Source: Lachnospiraceae bacterium (lineage in GTDB: Bacteria > Bacillota > Clostridia > Lachnospirales > Lachnospiraceae). From it: DNA of 64,000 nucleotides. The notes under the pieces are model-generated. The model did no database searches. It saw only the letters and a program-made list of their open reading frames with translations, and was not told where the DNA came from. Where the stretch lies: assembly GCA_014804675.1 (NCBI GenBank), contig JAAUZH010000009.1, forward strand, positions 221,684 to 285,683, given 5' to 3'. The number at the start of each line of letters is the position of its first letter. Position 1 is the first letter of the stretch. The position numbers and the translations under genes were made by a program. Positions 3,535 through 42,126 of the stretch are shown in pieces.

Positions 3535-4209
3535 ATGGCAAAAGTAATTGCGATAATGGGAGAGTCTGGTTCTGGAAAGACAACTTCCATGCGTAATCTT
3601 GACCCCGAAACAACTTATTACATTGATTGTGATAAAAAGGGGCTTAGTTGGAAAGGTTGGCGCAATCAGTACAAGACAGGTGTAAATTATACCGCAACTG
3701 ATATGCCTGCAATAGTAAAAAATCTTCTTGTGTGGCTTGACGGAAAAAGGATTGATGAAAAAACAAAACAGCCAAATACAAAAGGATTGAAGTTCAAAAC
3801 CGTTGTCATTGATACATTGAACGGAATTATGGTTGCTGAGGAAATGCGAAATTTAAAGGTTAATGGATATGGTAAGTGGTCAGATTTGGCAGCATATATC
3901 TATGAAATTATTGACTATGCCTTAGTGATGAGAAATGACCTTACAGTTATATTTGTAGCTCATTCAGAAACTATTTCAGACGAAAACGGAATGATATTTA
4001 CAAGGATTAAAACAAATGGGCGCAAGTTGGACAGGATCGTTGTTGAAAGCAAGCTCACAACAGTTCTTTTGGCAGAATGTAAGGACGGAAAGTATATTTT
4101 CCATACTCATGCAAACCGCTCAACTGCCAAAACACCGCTTGGAGCATTTGAAAATGATGAAATTGAAAACGACATTGCGACCGTGATTAAAGAATTGGAG
4201 GAATTTTAA
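3535..4209 (+). CDS. Sak4-like RecA-fold recombination ATPase
   Basis: A 224-residue AAA/RecA-fold ATPase. The Walker A motif is GESGSGKTT (residues 8-16). The Walker B-like strand is KTVVIDT near 98, and VIFVAHSE near 140 corresponds to the sensor strand. Proteins of this size without a second domain are Sak4-type single-strand-annealing ATPases that load phage SSB-coated DNA for recombination. The next gene, which starts directly after its stop, encodes an SSB-like acidic-tailed protein, the usual Sak4 partner. Confidence 0.8.
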   Translation: MAKVIAIMGESGSGKTTSMRNLDPETTYYIDCDKKGLSWKGWRNQYKTGVNYTATDMPAIVKNLLVWLDGKRIDEKTKQPNTKGLKFKTVVIDTLNGIMVAEEMRNLKVNGYGKWSDLAAYIYEIIDYALVMRNDLTVIFVAHSETISDENGMIFTRIKTNGRKLDRIVVESKLTTVLLAECKDGKYIFHTHANRSTAKTPLGAFENDEIENDIATVIKELEEF

Positions 4210-34592: not shown

Positions 34593-34714
34593 ACGTGGAA
34601 GGCGGTGTATTGTAACAGTTCAGCCCACCCGAGGGGAGAGTGCATTTGAAAGGCATGGAGCCGGCAGAGCATATAGCAGTCTGTCAGGCCTTGGCAAAGT
34701 CGCCAGCACTTACG

Positions 34715-36316
34715 CAATGCCATTAAGTTAAGAAAAAAGGATGTTATGCATAGTATTTATAATTATAAATGTTGTTCTTAATCGGGCGTGGATTTTAATT
34801 TTTGACATCACAAACAGACAGATTGAAATCTGTCTGAAAAAAGCTTATAATAATTATGTTCTAACTTCGATGCATGAGCGACATACTTTTATTGCGTTTG
34901 ATATTCCTGATAAAGGATCTCTCTCCTTTATCAGGATAGGTATATCGCTTTATCAGGTTATCAACATCGAAAGGCGGGATCCTACAGGGATATCTTTTAA
35001 GAAAGCGTGTGCATATCCTTATCAGCATCGAGAAATTTATGCGGTATGGGTATCTGGTGCCACTGCTTCTGGCTGGTTCTGTATCTGATGCTGTTGCGGA
35101 GCAGAAATTATACATGACCAATGCCGCAAATATCTCCTGGCATATGAATTCCGTCTTTTTTGAGTGTAATGTCTTTAAACCTGACACGTATTTCAAGAAC
35201 CGGAATGCTGTTTCGATGCCCCATCGTTTATGGTAGAGCTCCTTGAGTTCGTCGACAGTGAATTCCTCCTGTGGAAGGTTCGTTGCAATACACTCATATT
35301 GGTCTTCTGATATCTTGAACCTTACGAACCTGATACGGATATCATAATAATCATCTTTGGTCTTTATATAATCAAACGGGCGTCTGTTCCCTATTATTTT
35401 AACGGCGGGGTCGCTGCCAGCTTCCTTGCTCTGTGACTTCGTGCATCTCCAGTCTACGACTACATCAAATTCATCCTCTGCCTTTAAATGTGGCAGCGTG
35501 GAAGCCAGGCCGTTGCTGTCGGTATCTTTGACCCTGATAAGGAATTTCCGGCCGCTTTCAATGATATGTGCAAATACATTTAATGATTCATAGCCCCTGT
35601 CAGCCATGAAGATAGTGGGCAGGCTGGAAGGATACCTGTCCACCATGGTATTCATGCAGCAGCGTTCCGCAGATTTTGCCCTTCCCTTTATGGCTGCATC
35701 CAGGAAGAGGTTGTTGGTGATATCATACATCGCATTCAGATGCATGAGGTTGCATCCGTTATTGCTGCGGGACCTGCTTTCCAGATAAGTAGCCTTATCG
35801 TTCGCATTACGGGATATGCTTATGTCAGTCCCGTCGCATGCCACGAGCCTGTAGCCTTTATACAGCTTCTGGGGCCTTATCTTTCCGGTAAAGATATGCA
35901 GCAGCCTGGAAAAACCTTCCGGCCTTATTTTATTACGTTGTTGCACAAATGCGGAAGATGTGGGGATTTCCGGGGACCTGCTTCCAAAAAAATCCAAAAG
36001 TTCCATGTCAAGGGTGGAACTTCCCAACAGCAGGACATTCCTTACGGTATCCTGGAATGGTATTTTCCGGCAGCGGGTAAAGTTTTTTCCCGGAGCGGTC
36101 AGGACTTCTTTTGGAAACAACAAGAGTTCGTCAATGGAGTCCCATAATAGTTCTTTCGTTTTGTTAAAATCTGTCATAGCGTGTACCTCCTGAAATGTAT
36201 ATTTAAGGGGCTTCGCCGCAGATTTTTATATAATTGTCAAGTGTTTTTTATAAAAAAAGATATTGTTTATAGTATTCAACTATAAACAATATCTTTTTCT
36301 TAACTTAATGGCATTG
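34715..36316 (-). mobile_element. IS4-family insertion sequence, 1602 bp
   Basis: Terminal inverted repeats of 23 bases (CAATGCCATTAAGTTAAG..., 34715-34737 and 36294-36316) bound a single transposase gene. The target GCACTTACG is duplicated at 34706-34714 and 36317-36325. A 20-base perfect hairpin (36254-36273 with 36279-36298) near the right end, and AGACAGATT/ATCTGTCT near 34815, can block transcription entering from outside. The target is the loop-proximal stem of a foldback element. Confidence 0.93.
34861..36177 (-). CDS. IS4-family DDE transposase
   Basis: A 438-residue transposase. The catalytic triad is seen as VACDGTDISI (first Asp, about 95), IFMADRGYESL (second Asp, about 189) and YHKRWGIETAFRFLK (Glu within the Y-2-R-3-E-6-K signature of IS4, about 325). 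An AGGAGGTACAC site precedes the ATG at 36177. The frame is intact, so the element may still be active. Confidence 0.95.
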   Translation of the reverse strand: MTDFNKTKELLWDSIDELLLFPKEVLTAPGKNFTRCRKIPFQDTVRNVLLLGSSTLDMELLDFFGSRSPEIPTSSAFVQQRNKIRPEGFSRLLHIFTGKIRPQKLYKGYRLVACDGTDISISRNANDKATYLESRSRSNNGCNLMHLNAMYDITNNLFLDAAIKGRAKSAERCCMNTMVDRYPSSLPTIFMADRGYESLNVFAHIIESGRKFLIRVKDTDSNGLASTLPHLKAEDEFDVVVDWRCTKSQSKEAGSDPAVKIIGNRRPFDYIKTKDDYYDIRIRFVRFKISEDQYECIATNLPQEEFTVDELKELYHKRWGIETAFRFLKYVSGLKTLHSKKTEFICQEIFAALVMYNFCSATASDTEPARSSGTRYPYRINFSMLIRICTRFLKRYPCRIPPFDVDNLIKRYTYPDKGERSFIRNIKRNKSMSLMHRS

Positions 36317-36655
36317 GCACTTACGCACCGTATTTGGGTGCGTTAGTACTGCTGCGTCTTTGCAGAGCGAAAGCGTGCCTGACAGACTGCTATATGCTCT
36401 GCCAGCTCCATGCCTTTCAAATGCACTCTCCCCTCGGGTGGGCTGAACTGTTACATTAGATAAAAAATTTATGTTTTTAGGGAACCTTTTTCTTTGCTGA
36501 ATCCTCTAATATATAGAAAGCTAAATAAATTGCATTGTAGTGTATAATGTATATATTTAGCAGGAAGCTGTTGCAACACTTCAAATGATATTCTACATGA
36601 CAGATTTGTTGTGTACTTTATTTGTAAATATACTGCCGGAGGAAGGAGATATGTC

Positions 36656-37162
36656 TTGGATAAAGAAACATTTGCCAGGCTGGTGATTGACTCTACAAAT
36701 AGTCTATACCGGGTCAGCAAGTCGATTCTGCAAAATGATTCCGACTGCGAAGATGCAGTGAGTGAAGCCATTACAATTGCATTTCAAAAGCTGGATTCCT
36801 TAAAAAAAGACGAGTATGCCAAAACATGGCTGACAAGAATACTGATTCATGAATGCTATCATATGCGAAAACAGCAAAGCAGAATCACATTGTTCCCCCA
36901 CGATGGCGAAGGCATTTTGAATCATAAGGGACATCAGGAAAACAACGGTTTTATGGATGTTGAGAACTATAGTGATTTATATGAAGCTATGGGGCAGTTA
37001 AAGGAAAAGCAGAGGCTTGTACTTACCCTCTATTATTATGAGGGATATTCGATAAAAGAGATTGGAGCAATCATGGGGATAACCCAGGGAACTGTTAAGA
37101 GCCGGCTGGGCAGAGCCAGAAATCAACTAAAAATTTTCTTGGAGGAAGAATCTTATGTATAA
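36656..37162 (+). CDS. ECF-type sigma factor
   Basis: A 168-residue sigma-70 family protein with region 2 at about 5-65 (SNSLYRVSKSIL-type start, CEDAVSEAITIAF) and region 4 at about 110-160 (LKEKQRLVLTLYYYEGYSIKEIGAIMGITQGTVKSRLGRAR). It lacks region 1 and 3, as ECF factors do. The TTG at 36656 lies 6 bases after GGAGGAAGGAGAT; the ATG at 36651 is out of frame. It overlaps the next gene by 8 bases, which fits a sigma/anti-sigma pair. Confidence 0.88.
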   Translation: MDKETFARLVIDSTNSLYRVSKSILQNDSDCEDAVSEAITIAFQKLDSLKKDEYAKTWLTRILIHECYHMRKQQSRITLFPHDGEGILNHKGHQENNGFMDVENYSDLYEAMGQLKEKQRLVLTLYYYEGYSIKEIGAIMGITQGTVKSRLGRARNQLKIFLEEESYV

Positions 37163-38447
37163 TCATTTAAAATTTCCGCGCACACCCGATTCATTTACTC
37201 AAAAAGTGCTACAAGTGGTCAGGGAGAATATGGAAACAGATGTCAATAAGGCTGAAAAAGAAGAGACTAGGTTAAATGCAGCATATGGTAAAAAGGAGGA
37301 AACTATTTTGAAAAATTTATATGAGAACGAAAATGAGAAAAAAGAGAGAAAGAACAATGCATGGAAGAAAAAGGCAGTGGCAGCGGCTCTTGCCCTGACA
37401 GTAGTGGGAGTCGGAGGCTTTACCGTTCATGCAGTAGTGGACTCTCTGGTGAAAGTCCGTATGGAGAGCATGTCACAGGAAGAAAAGACACAATACGTGG
37501 AGGAAGTGGATTCTATGATGGAAGATGCAAGCACGTATTCCAGAGAACTTACGCAAGAGGAAAAAGAACGGGAAAGAGAGCTGAGCATTGCTTACCATCA
37601 GGATGGAAGGTTTCCGGAAGGAGAACTGAAAAGAGTAGAGGATGAAAGTGAAGTGGACAGGGATATGCTTTGTTTTGCACCAAAGAATTTCTATTTCTAT
37701 CTTCCGGAAAGAACCCTTACCGACGAAGAGCTTTTGCAGATCATCGATTATCAAAATAAAGTGAATTACGCATTAACGGAAAGATATGAGAATACCTATG
37801 GAGAAGAAATAGCAGCACGGAAGGCAGACGCTGAAGAAACAAAACAGAATGTTGAAGCAAATGGTGGACTTACAGATGAAGAAGCAGTGGCAAAAGCACG
37901 GGAATGGCTTGATAAGCTGTATGGAAAAACAGTAGAAGGAATGGAAGTGTCATGTGCAATTGATACAGAAGGACTGGGGACAAAGGAATTACCTACTTAT
38001 GAGGTTAAATTTTCCTTTGCAGATGTAGATACATATACATTTACTATAGATGCTACAGACGGAAGCTTGATAGAGGCATTATATTCTGGTAAAGAATTAT
38101 CTGCTGAAGAAATGTCCGTATCGGATGGTGAGGCGAAAGCAGAGGCTTTAAGCCAGACTGCAGAGAAATATTTAAGAGATACATTTGGCATTTCACAAGA
38201 GTGCAGGGAAGTATACTACGCATATAACACGGACGAGAACAATACGGTCTTAAATAATATGATGGTCTTTCAATTTGTTATGGAAGACAACATGACTTAT
38301 GCGGTGGCTTTGGATTGTATGGACGGAGTACTGGAAGTATATAAGGTACAGGACTATGCTGCATGGCAAAAGAATTTGGAGACAGAAAAGGAGCTTGCAC
38401 AAAAAGGTGTCATGAATTATGAAGTGGTAAGAAATCAGTTAAGATAG
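37155..38447 (+). CDS. Putative membrane anti-sigma factor
   Basis: A 430-residue protein. The cytoplasmic N-terminus (about 1-70) is charged, one membrane helix spans about 73-94 (AVAAALALTVVGVGGFTVHA), and a large extracytoplasmic part follows. The latter contains FYLPERTLTDEELLQIIDYQ near 176 and two PepSY/YcdB-like blocks (EAVAKAREWLDKLYG, KAEALSQTAEKYLRDTFG). Translational coupling to the sigma gene and topology fit a sensor that holds the sigma factor. The shared FLPERTLTDEELLQ motif links it to the lipoprotein downstream. Confidence 0.75.
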   Translation: MYNHLKFPRTPDSFTQKVLQVVRENMETDVNKAEKEETRLNAAYGKKEETILKNLYENENEKKERKNNAWKKKAVAAALALTVVGVGGFTVHAVVDSLVKVRMESMSQEEKTQYVEEVDSMMEDASTYSRELTQEEKERERELSIAYHQDGRFPEGELKRVEDESEVDRDMLCFAPKNFYFYLPERTLTDEELLQIIDYQNKVNYALTERYENTYGEEIAARKADAEETKQNVEANGGLTDEEAVAKAREWLDKLYGKTVEGMEVSCAIDTEGLGTKELPTYEVKFSFADVDTYTFTIDATDGSLIEALYSGKELSAEEMSVSDGEAKAEALSQTAEKYLRDTFGISQECREVYYAYNTDENNTVLNNMMVFQFVMEDNMTYAVALDCMDGVLEVYKVQDYAAWQKNLETEKELAQKGVMNYEVVRNQLR

Positions 38448-38495
38448 AAGGGAGGTTGAGATAGTAGGTTTGTTATAAATAATCTAATCAATATT

Positions 38496-38531
38496 GACAG
38501 TACCATAGTTGAAAACTGCTATGGTACTGTC
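38496..38531 (+). terminator. Hairpin between sigma operon genes
   Basis: GACAGTACCATAG (38496-38508) pairs perfectly with CTATGGTACTGTC (38519-38531) around ten bases. Only a weak T-rich tract follows, so it may attenuate or protect RNA ends rather than fully terminate. Confidence 0.6.
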
Positions 38532-38665
38532 CCTATTGTTTCCAGTCGATTGCAAAACACTCTGCAGCCACAATTGAGGGATATTCTTTATGAGAGAAAA
38601 GAACCAGATTTGCAGTGTATAAAAATGACGCAGGCATGGGAGAAAAAGACGGAGGAGAAAGTTTT

Positions 38666-39913
38666 ATGAAGCAGGAGAAATCCGGTGAGGAAAAGAAAAA
38701 AAGGAATCAGAACAGAATTCTTTTTGTGGGCATATTTTTCTGTATGATGTTAGTAGTAGCTTTTTTTTCAGCATGTAATGCCGTAAAAAAATATAGCGAT
38801 AGCGGAAAAGAAGAAATGACGGAGAGCCCGGACAGCAGCTGGAAGGAACCGTCAGAAGGTTTGGTTGACAGCCAGGAAGAAGCGGTGATAAAAGGAAATA
38901 AGAACAGCATGGAACGGTATTTAGAAGTAAAAGACCCGGAGAAGATAACAAAGGAGCATACAACAGAAGCATTATGTTACTCCAGAGAGCTGTCCGAAGA
39001 AGAATTGGTACGTTATCAGGAGTTTTTGGATAGATATGAAGAGGATGAGTTGGATTCAGAAGAGGAAATAGAGATTATTGACAGGCTGGAAGAGTCTGAA
39101 AAAGAGGTGGAACATCCTGTTTTTGAAATTTGGAATCAGGAATTTTTTCTTCCGGAACGGACACTGACAGACGAGGAGCTTTTGCAGATGGTAGATTTTC
39201 AATATAAGCTGAGCTACGCCCAGATGCAGAGAAATGAAGAAATGAGGAAAGCTGCCGAAAATTCTCAGGATAAAGTGGAAGAGAATGAAGTAATGGAAAT
39301 TGCGGGCCAGGTAATAGAGAAAATGTTTGGTAACGATGTTTCATCCATGGATAAGGAAGTGCAATTTAATGGGGTGGACTCCTACCTAGTGTTTCTGAGA
39401 AAAAAATCAGAAGCTACTAATTATTATACTGTGATGATTGATATGGGGACAGGAAAGATTGAATGGGTTAGAGATAATACCAATGAGTTTGGTCTGGAGA
39501 ATGCTGTTGAAATAAATCAGGAGTTTGAAGAATTGTGTGTTGCTAACTACCAAAAGGCAAAAACGATTCTTACTGATATTTTGGGAGCCGATACAGAACT
39601 GATAGGCAGCGGCTATCAATATAAAACAGAAAAAAAAGGGAAGGAAATACCGAAAGGGGAAGCCGGAATCATACATTATTATTTTCAGATGGGGGACGAG
39701 ACGGTGTACCATATGAGATATGAGATTGAAAAGAAGGGATTTTACGAGTTGTCAGTAGAAGAAAAGAAGTATAGCGCTTATCATACAAGAGAGGAGATGG
39801 AAAAGGAAGGAGCTGAAATGGATGGGGAAAAATTCATTGTGCCTTTGACGGGAGCGGAAAAGGAAGTATCCAGGAATGAGAATTTACAATGGATTGTGAT
39901 ACCTATGGAGTAG
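38666..39913 (+). CDS. Lipoprotein paralog of the anti-sigma sensor domain
   Basis: A 415-residue protein: basic N-terminus, hydrophobic segment ending VVAFFSACNA, a lipobox-like Cys near residue 36, then a long acidic domain. FFLPERTLTDEELLQMVDFQYKLSYA near 163 matches the preceding protein's sensor domain, as does the PepSY-like C-terminal half. It therefore looks like a soluble or lipid-anchored partner derived from the same sensor. The start at 38666 follows GGAGGAGAAAG. Function in signalling is inferred. Confidence 0.7.
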   Translation: MKQEKSGEEKKKRNQNRILFVGIFFCMMLVVAFFSACNAVKKYSDSGKEEMTESPDSSWKEPSEGLVDSQEEAVIKGNKNSMERYLEVKDPEKITKEHTTEALCYSRELSEEELVRYQEFLDRYEEDELDSEEEIEIIDRLEESEKEVEHPVFEIWNQEFFLPERTLTDEELLQMVDFQYKLSYAQMQRNEEMRKAAENSQDKVEENEVMEIAGQVIEKMFGNDVSSMDKEVQFNGVDSYLVFLRKKSEATNYYTVMIDMGTGKIEWVRDNTNEFGLENAVEINQEFEELCVANYQKAKTILTDILGADTELIGSGYQYKTEKKGKEIPKGEAGIIHYYFQMGDETVYHMRYEIEKKGFYELSVEEKKYSAYHTREEMEKEGAEMDGEKFIVPLTGAEKEVSRNENLQWIVIPME

Positions 39914-39997
39914 ATGGGGACGTGGGAGTATAATATAAATACAAGATATAGAATAATTTTTTATGAAGATTCATACTGTTTATGGGGTGATGTTTTT

Positions 39998-40075
39998 ATG
40001 AAGAGGTTATTCAATCGTTTCAACAATAAGAAGAAAAAAGTAAATGAGTACATTCCGAGCGATTATGACCGGTGA
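39998..40075 (+). CDS. Tiny basic peptide, 25 aa
   Basis: A 25-residue Lys/Asn-rich peptide (MKRLFNRFNNKKKKVNEY...) after TGGGGTGATG. It is followed by a bidirectional terminator. The amphipathic start resembles small membrane-binding peptides. Weak evidence that it is translated. Confidence 0.3.
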   Translation: MKRLFNRFNNKKKKVNEYIPSDYDR

Positions 40076-40100
40076 GCATAAAACTATTTAAAGGATAGAA

Positions 40101-40134
40101 AAGAACCTTGGGAGGATCAAGGTTCTTTTTTTAC
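40101..40134. terminator. Bidirectional terminator
   Basis: AAGAACCTTG (40101-40110) pairs perfectly with CAAGGTTCTT (40118-40127), with seven T after it. It also covers the end of the convergent queuosine transporter gene. Confidence 0.9.
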
Positions 40135-40827
40135 AGCTTCTTTTTCGAATATATACCGGGCAAGATAGATAAAAGGAGTATCCAAAAGGCTGGTAACAAT
40201 AAAAATCACATAGCTGGAAAAAGCAATGGAAATCAGAGTAGCCGTATTATGGGTTCCAAGGAAGGCTCCCCAGGTAAACAGAACGGTGTTCAGCAGTTGG
40301 GAAACCAAAGTAGAGCCATTATTTCTAAGCCATAGAAACTTCTTTTTATCACCGAATTTCCGGTTGGTAAATGCCCACCATTTATGATAAGCCCATACAT
40401 CAAAAAGCTGGACGATCACATATACCACAATGCCTACCAGCATAAGCCTTGGAGTGTTGGAAAAGACAGCCCGGATAGAAGGCATGGCAAAATCATTTTC
40501 ATTTGGTGTATAAAAAAGCCAGGACTGGCTGATGGCAATAAAGGCCACAGAGGTGGCGATTCCAAGCCATACGGCAGTCTGAGCCGCCTTTTTTCCGTAT
40601 AACTCACTGAGAATATCCGTCACTAAAAAAGTGGATGCAAATAGAATATTTCCTAATGTCATTTCCATGCCAAAAGCATTTACTACGATCAACACTTCAA
40701 TGTTGGCGGCAATGGTAGCGATTACGGTCCATAGATATAAGCCTTGTTCTTTAAACAGCTTAAGTAAGACAATGACAGCGGAAAAAGTAATCAATAAAGA
40801 TACAACCAATAATATCTCATTACGCAT
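40117..40827 (-). CDS. yhhQ: YhhQ-family queuosine precursor transporter
   Basis: A 236-residue membrane protein with about six helices and the VUT/YhhQ (DUF165) pattern: NILFASTFLVTDILSELYGKKAA near 60-82, LFDVWAYHKWW near 140-150 and STLVSQLLNTVLF near 172. Members import queuosine precursors such as preQ0, preQ1 or queuine. It overlaps the radical SAM gene by 8 bases behind GGAGGAG, so the two form one operon under the preQ1 riboswitch. The exact substrate is not determined by sequence. Confidence 0.88.
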   Translation of the reverse strand: MRNEILLVVSLLITFSAVIVLLKLFKEQGLYLWTVIATIAANIEVLIVVNAFGMEMTLGNILFASTFLVTDILSELYGKKAAQTAVWLGIATSVAFIAISQSWLFYTPNENDFAMPSIRAVFSNTPRLMLVGIVVYVIVQLFDVWAYHKWWAFTNRKFGDKKKFLWLRNNGSTLVSQLLNTVLFTWGAFLGTHNTATLISIAFSSYVIFIVTSLLDTPFIYLARYIFEKEAVKKEP

Positions 40828-41548
40828 GTTCCACAACTCCTCCCACACCAAAAGCGGTGTTTTCCATTAAAATATCAATTCGTTTGTTTGATTCATATTT
40901 GGGATAAAGCTCCCTGGTAAAAGCAGCAATGACGTCTGGGTCCGGTTTAATGGGTTTTCTATTTTCCTGCATGATATTGATACATACCCGTTCAAAATAA
41001 GCAAGACCTGTCTGAATGTCCCGGTCCATGCTTTCTACGGTCTGTCCTGGAATGCCCTGTAATAGACATACTTCATCAAAATAAGCGGCAATCTCCTCTG
41101 GATTGTCCGTATCGATGCCTTTATCCAGATAGCTTTCCCGAAAAAGGGAATCAAAGGTTTCCACACCGATTTTTATTTTCAGAGTAATTCCCTTTTTGGC
41201 AAAGCGGGCACGAAAGTCCGGAATTTCTTCCCTGTGACACCAGTGGCATTCAAAATGTACTTCCCAAATTTCATGACTTTGGCAGACCTCTTCAATAAGG
41301 GCAAGGGTGGGCTCATCTAAGTCCACAAAGCTGCCGGAATTGATGACCTCCAGCTTGTGATGGATGCCGGTAACCTTGAAAAGCTGTTCCCGATTCAGGG
41401 CAAAATTGGCGGCTTCATCCGGTGAAGAGTCCAAATGATAATCACAAAAGCGGCAGCGCCTCCAGGCACAGCCCTTTCCCCGAAGCATAACAATTTCCCT
41501 TGGATTTTTTTCTTCAATAATAGAATAGCGGTTTGGCTCGAAATCCAT
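40820..41548 (-). CDS. Radical SAM enzyme, QueL-like queuine lyase candidate
   Basis: A 242-residue radical SAM protein with an unusual cluster motif CAWRRCRFC (about 28-36), that is CX4CX2C instead of CX3CX2C. Other landmarks are SGSFVDLDEPTLALIEEV, VHFECHWCHREE and IKIGVETFDS. Known precedent: Clostridioides difficile salvages queuine with a YhhQ transporter and the radical SAM lyase QueL. This gene is coupled to a yhhQ gene behind a preQ1 riboswitch, so the same role is likely but inferred. The start at 41548 behind GGAAAGGAA avoids translating through the terminator. Confidence 0.75.
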   Translation of the reverse strand: MDFEPNRYSIIEEKNPREIVMLRGKGCAWRRCRFCDYHLDSSPDEAANFALNREQLFKVTGIHHKLEVINSGSFVDLDEPTLALIEEVCQSHEIWEVHFECHWCHREEIPDFRARFAKKGITLKIKIGVETFDSLFRESYLDKGIDTDNPEEIAAYFDEVCLLQGIPGQTVESMDRDIQTGLAYFERVCINIMQENRKPIKPDPDVIAAFTRELYPKYESNKRIDILMENTAFGVGGVVEHA

Positions 41549-41615
41549 TTTTATAAATTCCTTTCCGGGATTTTCCAAGAATTGGATAGGATTGCGAAAA
41601 TGCTGCAATATTAAA

Positions 41616-41643
41616 ATAAAAAAGGACACGTATTCACGTGTCC
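41616..41643 (-). terminator. Riboswitch-controlled terminator
   Basis: On the minus strand GGACACGT and ACGTGTCC (41643-41624) form a perfect eight-pair hairpin with a four-base loop, followed by six T and an A/T run. It stands between the riboswitch and the start codon, so ligand binding can decide whether transcription continues. Confidence 0.85.
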
Positions 41644-41698
41644 ATCTTCATGCAAAAGAAACAGCCTGTGCGCTTTTTGCGCAAAGCCTTCTTGAAAT

Positions 41699-41738
41699 CC
41701 CTAGTTTTGTTTAGAGACAGGATGGTCACGAACTGTCT
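41699..41738 (-). promoter_or_regulatory. preQ1-I riboswitch aptamer
   Basis: On the minus strand AGACAG pairs with CTGTCT around the loop TTCGTGACCATC, followed by CTAAACAAAACTAGGG. This matches the class I preQ1 aptamer: a stem-loop with UUC...ACC and an A-rich tail ending AAACUA that folds back as a pseudoknot. The two downstream genes belong to queuosine metabolism, which supports the call. With the terminator 55 bases downstream it would switch the operon off when preQ1 is plentiful. Confidence 0.82.
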
Positions 41739-41760
41739 TATGTACTTATAAAGCATGGTT

Positions 41761-41789
41761 ATTATAGCACAGGGTTGGGGAAGGGGCAA
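41761..41789 (-). promoter_or_regulatory. Promoter of the queuosine salvage operon
   Basis: On the minus strand TTGCCC (41789-41784) and TATAAT (41766-41761) are 17 bases apart, about 23 bases before the aptamer. Confidence 0.75.
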
Positions 41790-41914
41790 GGGGATATTCA
41801 TGTCTGTAAAAAATTAAATTTTATGTATTTGCTTAATTAGTGGGGCTGTTGTTTTTTTGTTGGGATTTTCATGCTACAATTAAGAAAAGGGTGGAAGGGG
41901 GGGATAGGGGGACG

Positions 41915-42060
41915 TAGGAACTGGCATATCATCTAGTAGTCTTCTGGGCACGCTCTCGCTCTGCAAAGACGCAGCAGTACTAACGCACCCAAATACGGTG
42001 CGTAAGTGCTGGCGACTTTGCCAAGGCCCAGAAGACTACTAGATGATATGCCAGTTCCTA
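41915..42060. repeat. Foldback element 2, intact
   Basis: Perfect 35-base inverted arms (41915-41949 and 42026-42060; outer end TAGGAACTGGCATATC) enclose a 76-base core (41950-42025). The core matches foldback element 1 in reverse orientation at all but one base and itself forms a long stem with loop CAAATAC. Compared with the inner 33 bases of element 1, the arms differ at nine positions, and each difference is matched in the opposite arm. No coding capacity. It lies between the queuosine operon promoter and the two-component system. Confidence 0.9.
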
Positions 42061-42126
42061 CTGGGTATCGAAAGCCCTCTGCTATACCAAAGGCTTATGC
42101 TTTTGTGATGATTTTAACGACTTGGA

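What the first reader, a model, noticed from the sequence alone, without database searches (positions are those of the whole stretch)
34611..42060. Foldback repeat family with constant core and covarying arms
Elements at 34611-36455 (interrupted) and 41915-42060 share a 76-base core differing at one base, in opposite orientation. Their inner 33-base arms differ at nine positions, yet each arm pairs perfectly with its partner in both elements apart from one site in element 1. Core changes are rare while arm changes are frequent and compensated. This suggests either selection for one very long RNA hairpin or DNA cruciform, or a copying mechanism that makes one arm the template of the other. I know no described family with this pattern. 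It could be a structured RNA, a dsRNA source, or a non-autonomous mobile element acted on by a hairpin-processing enzyme.
Basis: seen in the sequence. Interest (0 to 1): 0.93.

Follow-up and report, generated by a model that had tools for sequence, protein, structure and literature searches.

The report
Hairpin elements that copy their arms
A bacterial genome carries about 130 copies of a hairpin element, found in many genera of the gut-bacterium family Lachnospiraceae, in which the core stays nearly the same while the two arms change sequence together, likely because one arm serves as the template that rewrites the other when the DNA is replicated.

Summary
The genome holds at least 134 copies, and a covariance model finds relatives in 101 of 250 sampled genomes of the same family, with three weak hits outside it in two wider samples. 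The core is a three-way junction; the strand opposite element 2 carries a GNRA mini-hairpin in 257 of 261 copies. Rfam has no match. Among 28 gapless copies of this genome, arms differ by 28% between copies, cores by 8%, and the two arms of one copy by 2.5%. At orthologous sites mirrored arm changes outnumber one-sided ones (67 to 36; about 2 mirrored expected by chance). Half of the mirrored substitutions tested are transversions. Insertions of 5-39 nt appear in both arms. Wobble and anti-wobble mismatches are equally common. The arms are therefore best explained by fold-back template switching, probably right arm copied from left, with the core held by selection. Support for that direction is modest. 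Template switching in RNA stems is published; this element family, with free arms and a conserved core, did not appear in my searches. Core function and transcription are untested.

The parts
41900..41913 (+). left flank motif of type A copies (GGATA..GGAC; read on the minus strand it gives the CGTCC tag at the base of the arm)
   Evidence: profile of 138 left flanks; CGTCC at this arm end in 159 of 161 type A copies
41914..41949 (+). element 2, left arm, 36 nt (inferred template arm)
   Evidence: perfect complement of 42026-42061
41950..42025 (-). element 2, conserved 76-nt core; structured strand is minus
   Evidence: CM match window 41936-42039 minus, 118.2 bits against 32.8 on plus
41954..41957 (-). 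GNRA tetraloop (GAGA on minus) of the mini-hairpin P3
   Evidence: GNRA in 257 of 261 copies
42026..42061 (+). element 2, right arm, 36 nt (inferred copied arm)
42062..42076 (+). right flank motif of type A copies (TGTGTATCGAAAGCC-like)
   Evidence: consensus over 120 copies
34612..34689 (+). element 1 (type B), arm starting GTAACAGTTCAGCC, 78 nt
   Evidence: TIR pattern hit G000:C9:256295
34690..34714 (+). element 1, core part before the insert; ends with one copy of the 9-bp target duplication
34715..36316 (-). insertion sequence in element 1, 18-bp terminal repeats; DDE_Tnp_1 transposase ORF 34861-36177
   Evidence: PF01609, E 7.6e-25
36317..36376 (+). element 1, core part after the insert; GNRA loop GAAA at 36369-36372; structured strand is plus
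   Evidence: CM match 36294-36386 plus, 55.6 bits
36377..36454 (+). element 1, other arm, 78 nt, one mismatch to 34612-34689 by eye
   Evidence: TIR pattern hit G000:C9:258124 minus

Best explanation
These are dispersed hairpin elements with a conserved core and arms of free sequence, and the arms likely stay complementary because replication folds back on the hairpin and copies one arm from the other. Shown: the family, its fold, the mirrored changes at orthologous sites, and arm duplications that occur in the left arm alone or in both arms. Inferred: during synthesis of the strand that runs left arm, core, right arm, the new strand folds at the core; its 3' end in the right arm pairs with the new left arm and is extended on it, then returns to the normal template. 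Stalling at the hairpin base would also explain why one-sided tandem duplications were seen only on the left. Point changes and duplications in the left arm are thereby written into the right arm, and changes in the right arm are erased. The core is not symmetrised because copying would start outside it and because selection keeps most of its mismatches and its GNRA hairpin; it probably acts as a structured RNA on the strand opposite element 2. Copies with GTAACAGTTCAG ends were probably spread by a DNA transposase that makes 8-bp target duplications; how the commonest type spread is unknown.
For: 34 ortholog-like pairs (not all independent): 67 mirrored columns, 36 one-sided, about 2 mirrored expected by chance. 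In the 24 pairs with equal arm length, 22 of 44 mirrored substitutions are transversions, which have no wobble intermediate. 18 of 161 type A copies have both arms lengthened to 41-75 nt with at most 2 gap columns and 4 mismatches. Locus L035/L219: L219 (in G004) has a 39-nt tandem duplication in the left arm and flank only; L035 (G000) has 73-nt arms on both sides; flank identity 82%, the lowest of the 34 pairs. L103 and L114: the right arm contains the complement of left-flank motifs. Symmetric motif-free test: a second copy of the outer arm in the flank on the left in 7 of 161 copies and on the right in 2 of 157; five are left only, two are on both sides, none right only. No strand preference of wobble mismatches. 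Exact donor arm elsewhere in the same genome in 1 of 24 tests. Core differs at 87 of 2584 sites (3.4%) where flanks differ by about 8.6%. L305/L321: at one locus the core and inner arms are identical but for two bases, while the outer arms are different sequences that still pair.
Against: No replication assay or RNA data. Direction rests on few copies: five left-only against no right-only duplications, four of the five from one genome (G002), plus L103 and L114. An earlier motif count (left 11 of 162, right 0) used a shorter motif on the left than on the right and overstates the contrast. One-sided differences were commoner in the right arm (16 to 7), which the model allows but does not require. 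Core mismatches are mostly kept but not always: of 112 copies, 102, 86 and 110 keep the U.U, C.A and U.U mismatches, while 2, 25 and 2 have a Watson-Crick pair there and 8 a G.U at the first, so copying or mutation can reach the core. Arm positions 4-6 keep 13-28% mismatches. GC skew suggests lagging-strand synthesis for type A (93 against 35 of 135 copies; 8 of 10 duplication copies), whereas PMC8794818 cites a leading-strand preference in E. coli. Ortholog calls rest on flank similarity in draft MAGs.
Confidence: 0.7

Rival explanations
1. Compensatory selection: the arms must pair as RNA, and each change in one arm is later compensated in the other.
For: About 95% of 10,570 arm columns are paired; the core is an RNA-like fold with GNRA; the core evolves more slowly than the flanks.
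Against: G.T about equals A.C among mismatches; half of the mirrored substitutions tested are transversions; insertions of up to 39 nt mirrored in both arms do not arise by stepwise compensation.
Confidence: 0.13
2. Ectopic gene conversion or recent transposition from a pool of copies replaces whole elements, so both arms change together.
For: Many related copies per genome; subtypes with target duplications and empty sites; L147 looks like an inverted recombinant of two copies.
Against: Exact donor arm found for 1 of 24 tested arms, though the relatives' copy sets are incomplete; flanks on both sides remain similar; 101 distinct middles among 124 arms.
Confidence: 0.13
3. Retrocopying: a transcript is reverse transcribed, the cDNA folds at the core and primes its own second arm, and the product inserts elsewhere.
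For: Would give perfect arms with the same left-to-right polarity.
Against: Arm changes occur in place, with outer right flanks kept after the rewritten arm; a reverse transcriptase link was not tested.
Confidence: 0.04

Closest known systems
Template-switch mutation in RNA stems (Monttinen and Loytynoja 2022, PMC8794818; Discussion and passages read)
   Same: A hairpin in the nascent strand templates the opposite stem half, giving simultaneous compensatory changes and stem insertions while the loop is kept.
   Different: Their large data set is rRNA, and they call the evidence for stem maintenance circumstantial; here one element family gives over a hundred copies in a genome, 36-80-nt stems, a likely polarity and loci with one or both arms changed.
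Quasipalindrome correction and homogenisation of inverted-repeat arms (PMC7202029, PMC8604942; start of abstracts seen in the listing only)
   Same: Imperfect inverted repeats converted towards perfect ones.
   Different: In what I saw, reported as mutation hotspots or in coding genes, not for a dispersed element family.
REPINs (PMC3116915; passages read)
   Same: Dispersed extragenic hairpins in high copy number; [quoted passage not shown]
   Different: REPINs conserve the ends and vary inside, and are tied to RAYT transposases; here the centre is conserved and the arms vary, and Y1 transposases are missing from two carriers.
CGTC-tagged REPs (PMC3733652; passages read)
   Same: CGTC at one end of a palindrome: CGTCC borders one arm in 159 of 161 type A copies.
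   Different: Their stems are 8-9 bp with 4-5-nt loops and no core; the words Firmicutes and Clostridi- do not occur in that text.
MRSC-65-2, mobile/repeat sequence candidate (PMC11109978; passages read)
   Same: Covarying long stem, often dozens of copies per genome, role unknown.
   Different: Described as a single long stem with a UYCCGG repeat in diverse phyla; ours has a three-way junction with GNRA and is nearly confined to one family in my samples.
MITEs (general knowledge)
   Same: Types B and C have terminal inverted repeats and 8-bp target duplications.
   Different: Arms differ between copies, and unrelated arms carry the same core in other genera.

Membership tests
REPIN / RAYT system | Highly conserved REP ends with a variable interior | tested here: not met
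   Core differs 8% and arms 28% between 28 copies
REPIN / RAYT system | Co-occurrence with a dedicated Y1 (RAYT) transposase | tested here: not met
   PF01797 absent in G001 and G016, which carry the element; one IS200-like gene in the own genome. RAYT subtypes were not modelled separately
CGTC-tagged REP | CGTC at one end of the palindrome | tested here: met
   159 of 161 type A copies; within 45 nt of the 3' end in 9 of 51 elements of other genera, against 2 and 0 in controls
CGTC-tagged REP | 8-9-bp stem and 4-5-nt loop | tested here: not met
   type A arms 23-75 nt, type B about 78 nt, 76-nt core
MITE of a DDE transposon (types B and C) | Terminal inverted repeats with target duplication of fixed length | tested here: met
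   8-bp exact duplication in 11 of 44, 7 or more of 8 in 17 of 44, against 0 of 176 control windows; clean empty sites L158/L102 and L105/L149
MITE of a DDE transposon (type A) | Target duplication | tested here: not met
   no enriched direct repeat over 166 copies
MITE of a DDE transposon | Autonomous partner with the same ends | tested here: inconclusive
   IS66 transposase PF03050: 0 in the own genome; other families not searched
Known structured RNA (Rfam 15) | Gathering-score match | tested here: not met
   no match on an element in the window or 25 loci; three hits at E 1.7-5.8, all far below gathering score,
Template-switch maintained stem | Simultaneous changes and insertions in both stem halves at one locus | tested here: met
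Template-switch maintained stem | Correction observed in replication | not testable with these tools
   needs a reporter assay

The most novel reading that the evidence does not exclude
A self-templating element: only the core carries information. Each copy rewrites its own arms by fold-back copying, so any sequence can serve as an arm, the pairing is upheld by mutation and not by selection, and textbook covariation arises without RNA selection on the stem. The core would be a new structured RNA or single-stranded DNA module of Lachnospiraceae that has kept its fold across about 100 genera.
Probability: 0.45. Interest if true: 0.88.

Novelty: new variant of a known kind. Interest (0 to 1): 0.74.

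Why it matters
Covariation is the standard proof of a functional RNA stem. Here is a natural system, with over a hundred copies in one genome, in which covariation can be separated from selection: mirrored transversions and mirrored insertions point to copying. It makes the open question of how long stems stay paired directly testable. The core is also a candidate new RNA family in a large gut-bacterial family.

Tried and rejected
Rfam on the window and 25 loci: nothing on the element. Plasmids and viral contigs: no match. RAYT link: not supported. IS66 as mobiliser because of the 8-bp duplication: no such gene in the genome. Own promoter 5' of the element in other genera: no clear peak. Target duplication for type A: none. 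L147 first looked like a fully symmetrised core made by copying; read by eye its halves resemble two different copies, so I treat it as an inverted recombinant and left it out of the ortholog counts and of the counts; some searches were run before that or without that filter. Strand from replication: only a proxy by local GC skew, which also reflects gene direction. Weak model hits outside the family, G640, G671 and G797, were not taken as members. The two 'none' cases of the GNRA script (50 of 52) are A-U-stemmed GAAA and GCGA loops by eye.

Rows dropped before counts: 27 of 261 copies without two readable arms (contig ends, truncation, insertions); L147 as said; duplicates of the same place. 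Ortholog pairs include several three-way comparisons of one locus. Most of the 29 pairs listed were not inspected one by one; eight were.

Full report
What is in the window. Element 2 (41914-42061) has two perfectly paired 36-nt arms around a 76-nt core. Element 1 (34612-36454, opposite orientation) has about 78-nt arms beginning GTAACAGTTCAGCC and is interrupted inside its core by an IS with an 18-bp terminal repeat, a 9-bp target duplication and a DDE_Tnp_1 transposase. The cores differ at one base, which falls in the GNRA loop described below. The model built later matches only at these two places in the window (E up to 1).

Copy number and range. A 30-nt core pattern has 89 matches in the genome against 0 for the reversed pattern. 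The covariance model R1 finds 134 places (lower bound, 150 of 798 candidates scored). Four relatives of the genus carry 14, 67, 35 and 67 pattern matches, and G005 and G016 none at that stringency, though blast finds one and three diverged copies there. With R1, 101 of 250 genomes of the same family, each from its own genus and the own genome included, have matches at E up to 0.001. Across the class 12 of 391 genomes match, 11 of them in the same family and one weak partial hit. Across the order 32 of 295 match, of which two are outside the family at E 1e-5 to 6e-5. No exact pattern match in viral contigs and no blast match in plasmids.

Fold. On an alignment of 22 diverse copies the structure has 34 pairs; 93.4% of cells are paired against 81.3% in shuffles and at most 46.3% in slid versions; 23 pairs have changes on both sides. 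It is a three-way junction: arm helix P1, a long P2 with conserved mismatches, and a two-pair mini-hairpin P3. On the minus strand of element 2 the P3 loop is GNRA in 257 of 261 copies (GAAA, GAGA, GGGA, GCAA, GGAA, GCGA) and in 50 of 52 elements of other genera by script, the last two being GNRA on an A-U stem by eye. On the other strand these read as loops of no motif known to me, so I take the structured strand to be the minus strand of element 2. In other genera the arms are of unrelated sequence, yet pairing continues for 8 nt or more beyond the model in 51 of 52 elements, against 1 of 52 when flanks are swapped between elements. Rfam has no match on the element.

Arms. Among 28 gapless type A copies of this genome the arms differ by 28% between copies (38% at positions 13-30), the cores by 8%, and the two arms of one copy by 2.5%. 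Mismatches gather at positions 4-6 from the core (13-28%) and are about 1.5% elsewhere. Over 234 copies, G.T mismatches number 129 and A.C 113, p=0.33. If RNA pairing on one strand were selected, the wobble of that strand should be in excess; it is not. Outside the model in other genera the counts are 19 and 11.

Changes in place. I paired copies of different genomes by both flanks: 34 pairs, mean flank identity 91.4%. Their arms show 67 mirrored and 36 one-sided columns, their cores 87 differences in 2584 sites. Independent change would give about 2 mirrored columns. In the 24 pairs of equal length, mirrored substitutions are 22 transitions and 22 transversions, one-sided ones 16 and 7. Only 1 of 24 arms tested had an exact donor elsewhere among the copies held for its genome. 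18 of 161 type A copies have both arms lengthened to 41-75 nt with at most two gap columns. At the locus L035/L219 the copy in G004 has a 39-nt tandem duplication of left arm and left flank and a single right arm, while the copy in G000 has 73-nt arms on both sides; the duplicated sequences are similar, not identical, and the flanks are 82% identical. In L103 and L114 the right arm contains the complement of left-flank motifs. In a symmetric test a second copy of the outer arm lies in the left flank in 7 of 161 copies and in the right flank in 2 of 157; five are left only (four of them in G002), two on both sides, none right only. In another genus, L305 and L321 lie upstream of the same gene: core and inner arms are identical but for two bases, the outer arms are different sequences, and both sets pair.

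Interpretation. The mirrored insertions and transversions fit copying of one arm from the other and not stepwise compensation. The polarity, on modest evidence, fits synthesis running left arm, core, right arm, with stalling at the hairpin base giving left-side duplications and fold-back giving the rewritten right arm. This is inference; no replication was observed. The published mechanism is template switching (PMC8794818: Discussion and passages read), whose authors say its role in maintaining short RNA stems is less clear and the strongest evidence circumstantial. The core changes less than the flanks and keeps its U.U, C.A and U.U mismatches in 102, 86 and 110 of 112 aligned copies, so I infer selection on it; the C.A site has become U-A in 25.

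Context and mobility. Type A copies, as sorted, mostly have both neighbours on the structured strand: 68 '<A<' against 22 '>A>', 22 '<A>' and 16 '>A<'. A start codon with a ribosome site lies within 420 nt on that side in 97 of 178 copies (some of the 178 had too little flank to test), 81 of them at 100-220 nt, with -10-like boxes peaking 60-120 nt past the arm. In 49 elements of other genera the 3' side is nearer to a gene than the 5' side in 38 (medians 54 and 185 nt). Types B and C carry 8-bp target duplications (11 of 44 exact; 0 of 176 controls reach 7 of 8). Clean empty sites in sister species were seen for L158/L102 and L105/L149; at L103/L211 and L033/L221 the other genome lacks the element but the flanks are ragged. 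Type A shows no target duplication.

Literature. Searches listed no paper on this family by title or abstract start. PMC8040213 reports 250 palindromic candidate RNAs in human microbiomes (passage) and PMC8632094 and PMC11109978 report repeat candidates (passages); their supplements were not open to me, so a catalogue may hold this family unnamed. PMC2267715 lists stem-loop families in other Firmicutes (passage). REPINs, CGTC REPs and MRSC-65-2 are the nearest kinds.

Noticed in passing
34715-36316: An IS with DDE_Tnp_1 transposase has inserted into the core of element 1, with 9-bp target duplication GCACTTACG.
   Followed up: partly
L031, L083, L092, L095, L098, L160: A core variant (10 copies flagged) carries an extra G+C-rich hairpin of about 36 nt on the side of the junction opposite P3.
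   Followed up: no
G000:C2:33245/33509, C13:45149/45397, C23:18376/18613, C39:83476/83809: The four element pairs closer than 500 nt in the genome lie 5' end to 5' end on the structured strand; pairs noted by eye in other genera (G016, G108, G158, G188, G380, G850, G889) have the same arrangement, apart from same-direction tandem copies in G131.
   Followed up: partly
L286-L333: In other genera the 3' side of the element tends to lie close to a gene, either before a start codon in sense or after a stop codon in antisense. No explanation.
   Followed up: partly
L147 (JAAVAC010000025.1), about 3640-3900: What look like two left halves of different copies joined head to head, an inversion junction or a MAG misassembly at the element.
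   Followed up: partly
L035:1057-1221 minus: A TwoAYGGAY RNA (RF01731, 95 bits) lies near a copy of the element.
   Followed up: no
L271, L279 (880-945; 943-1007): Short hairpins with the GTAACAGTTCAG ends but without the core, L271 with an 8-bp target duplication.
   Followed up: no
G000 contigs C12, C13, C21, C29, C31, C32: Several contigs begin or end inside an element, so the element may break short-read assembly.
   Followed up: no
L314 (G131:C21): Three tandem copies of the element at 187-nt spacing with identical scores.
   Followed up: no
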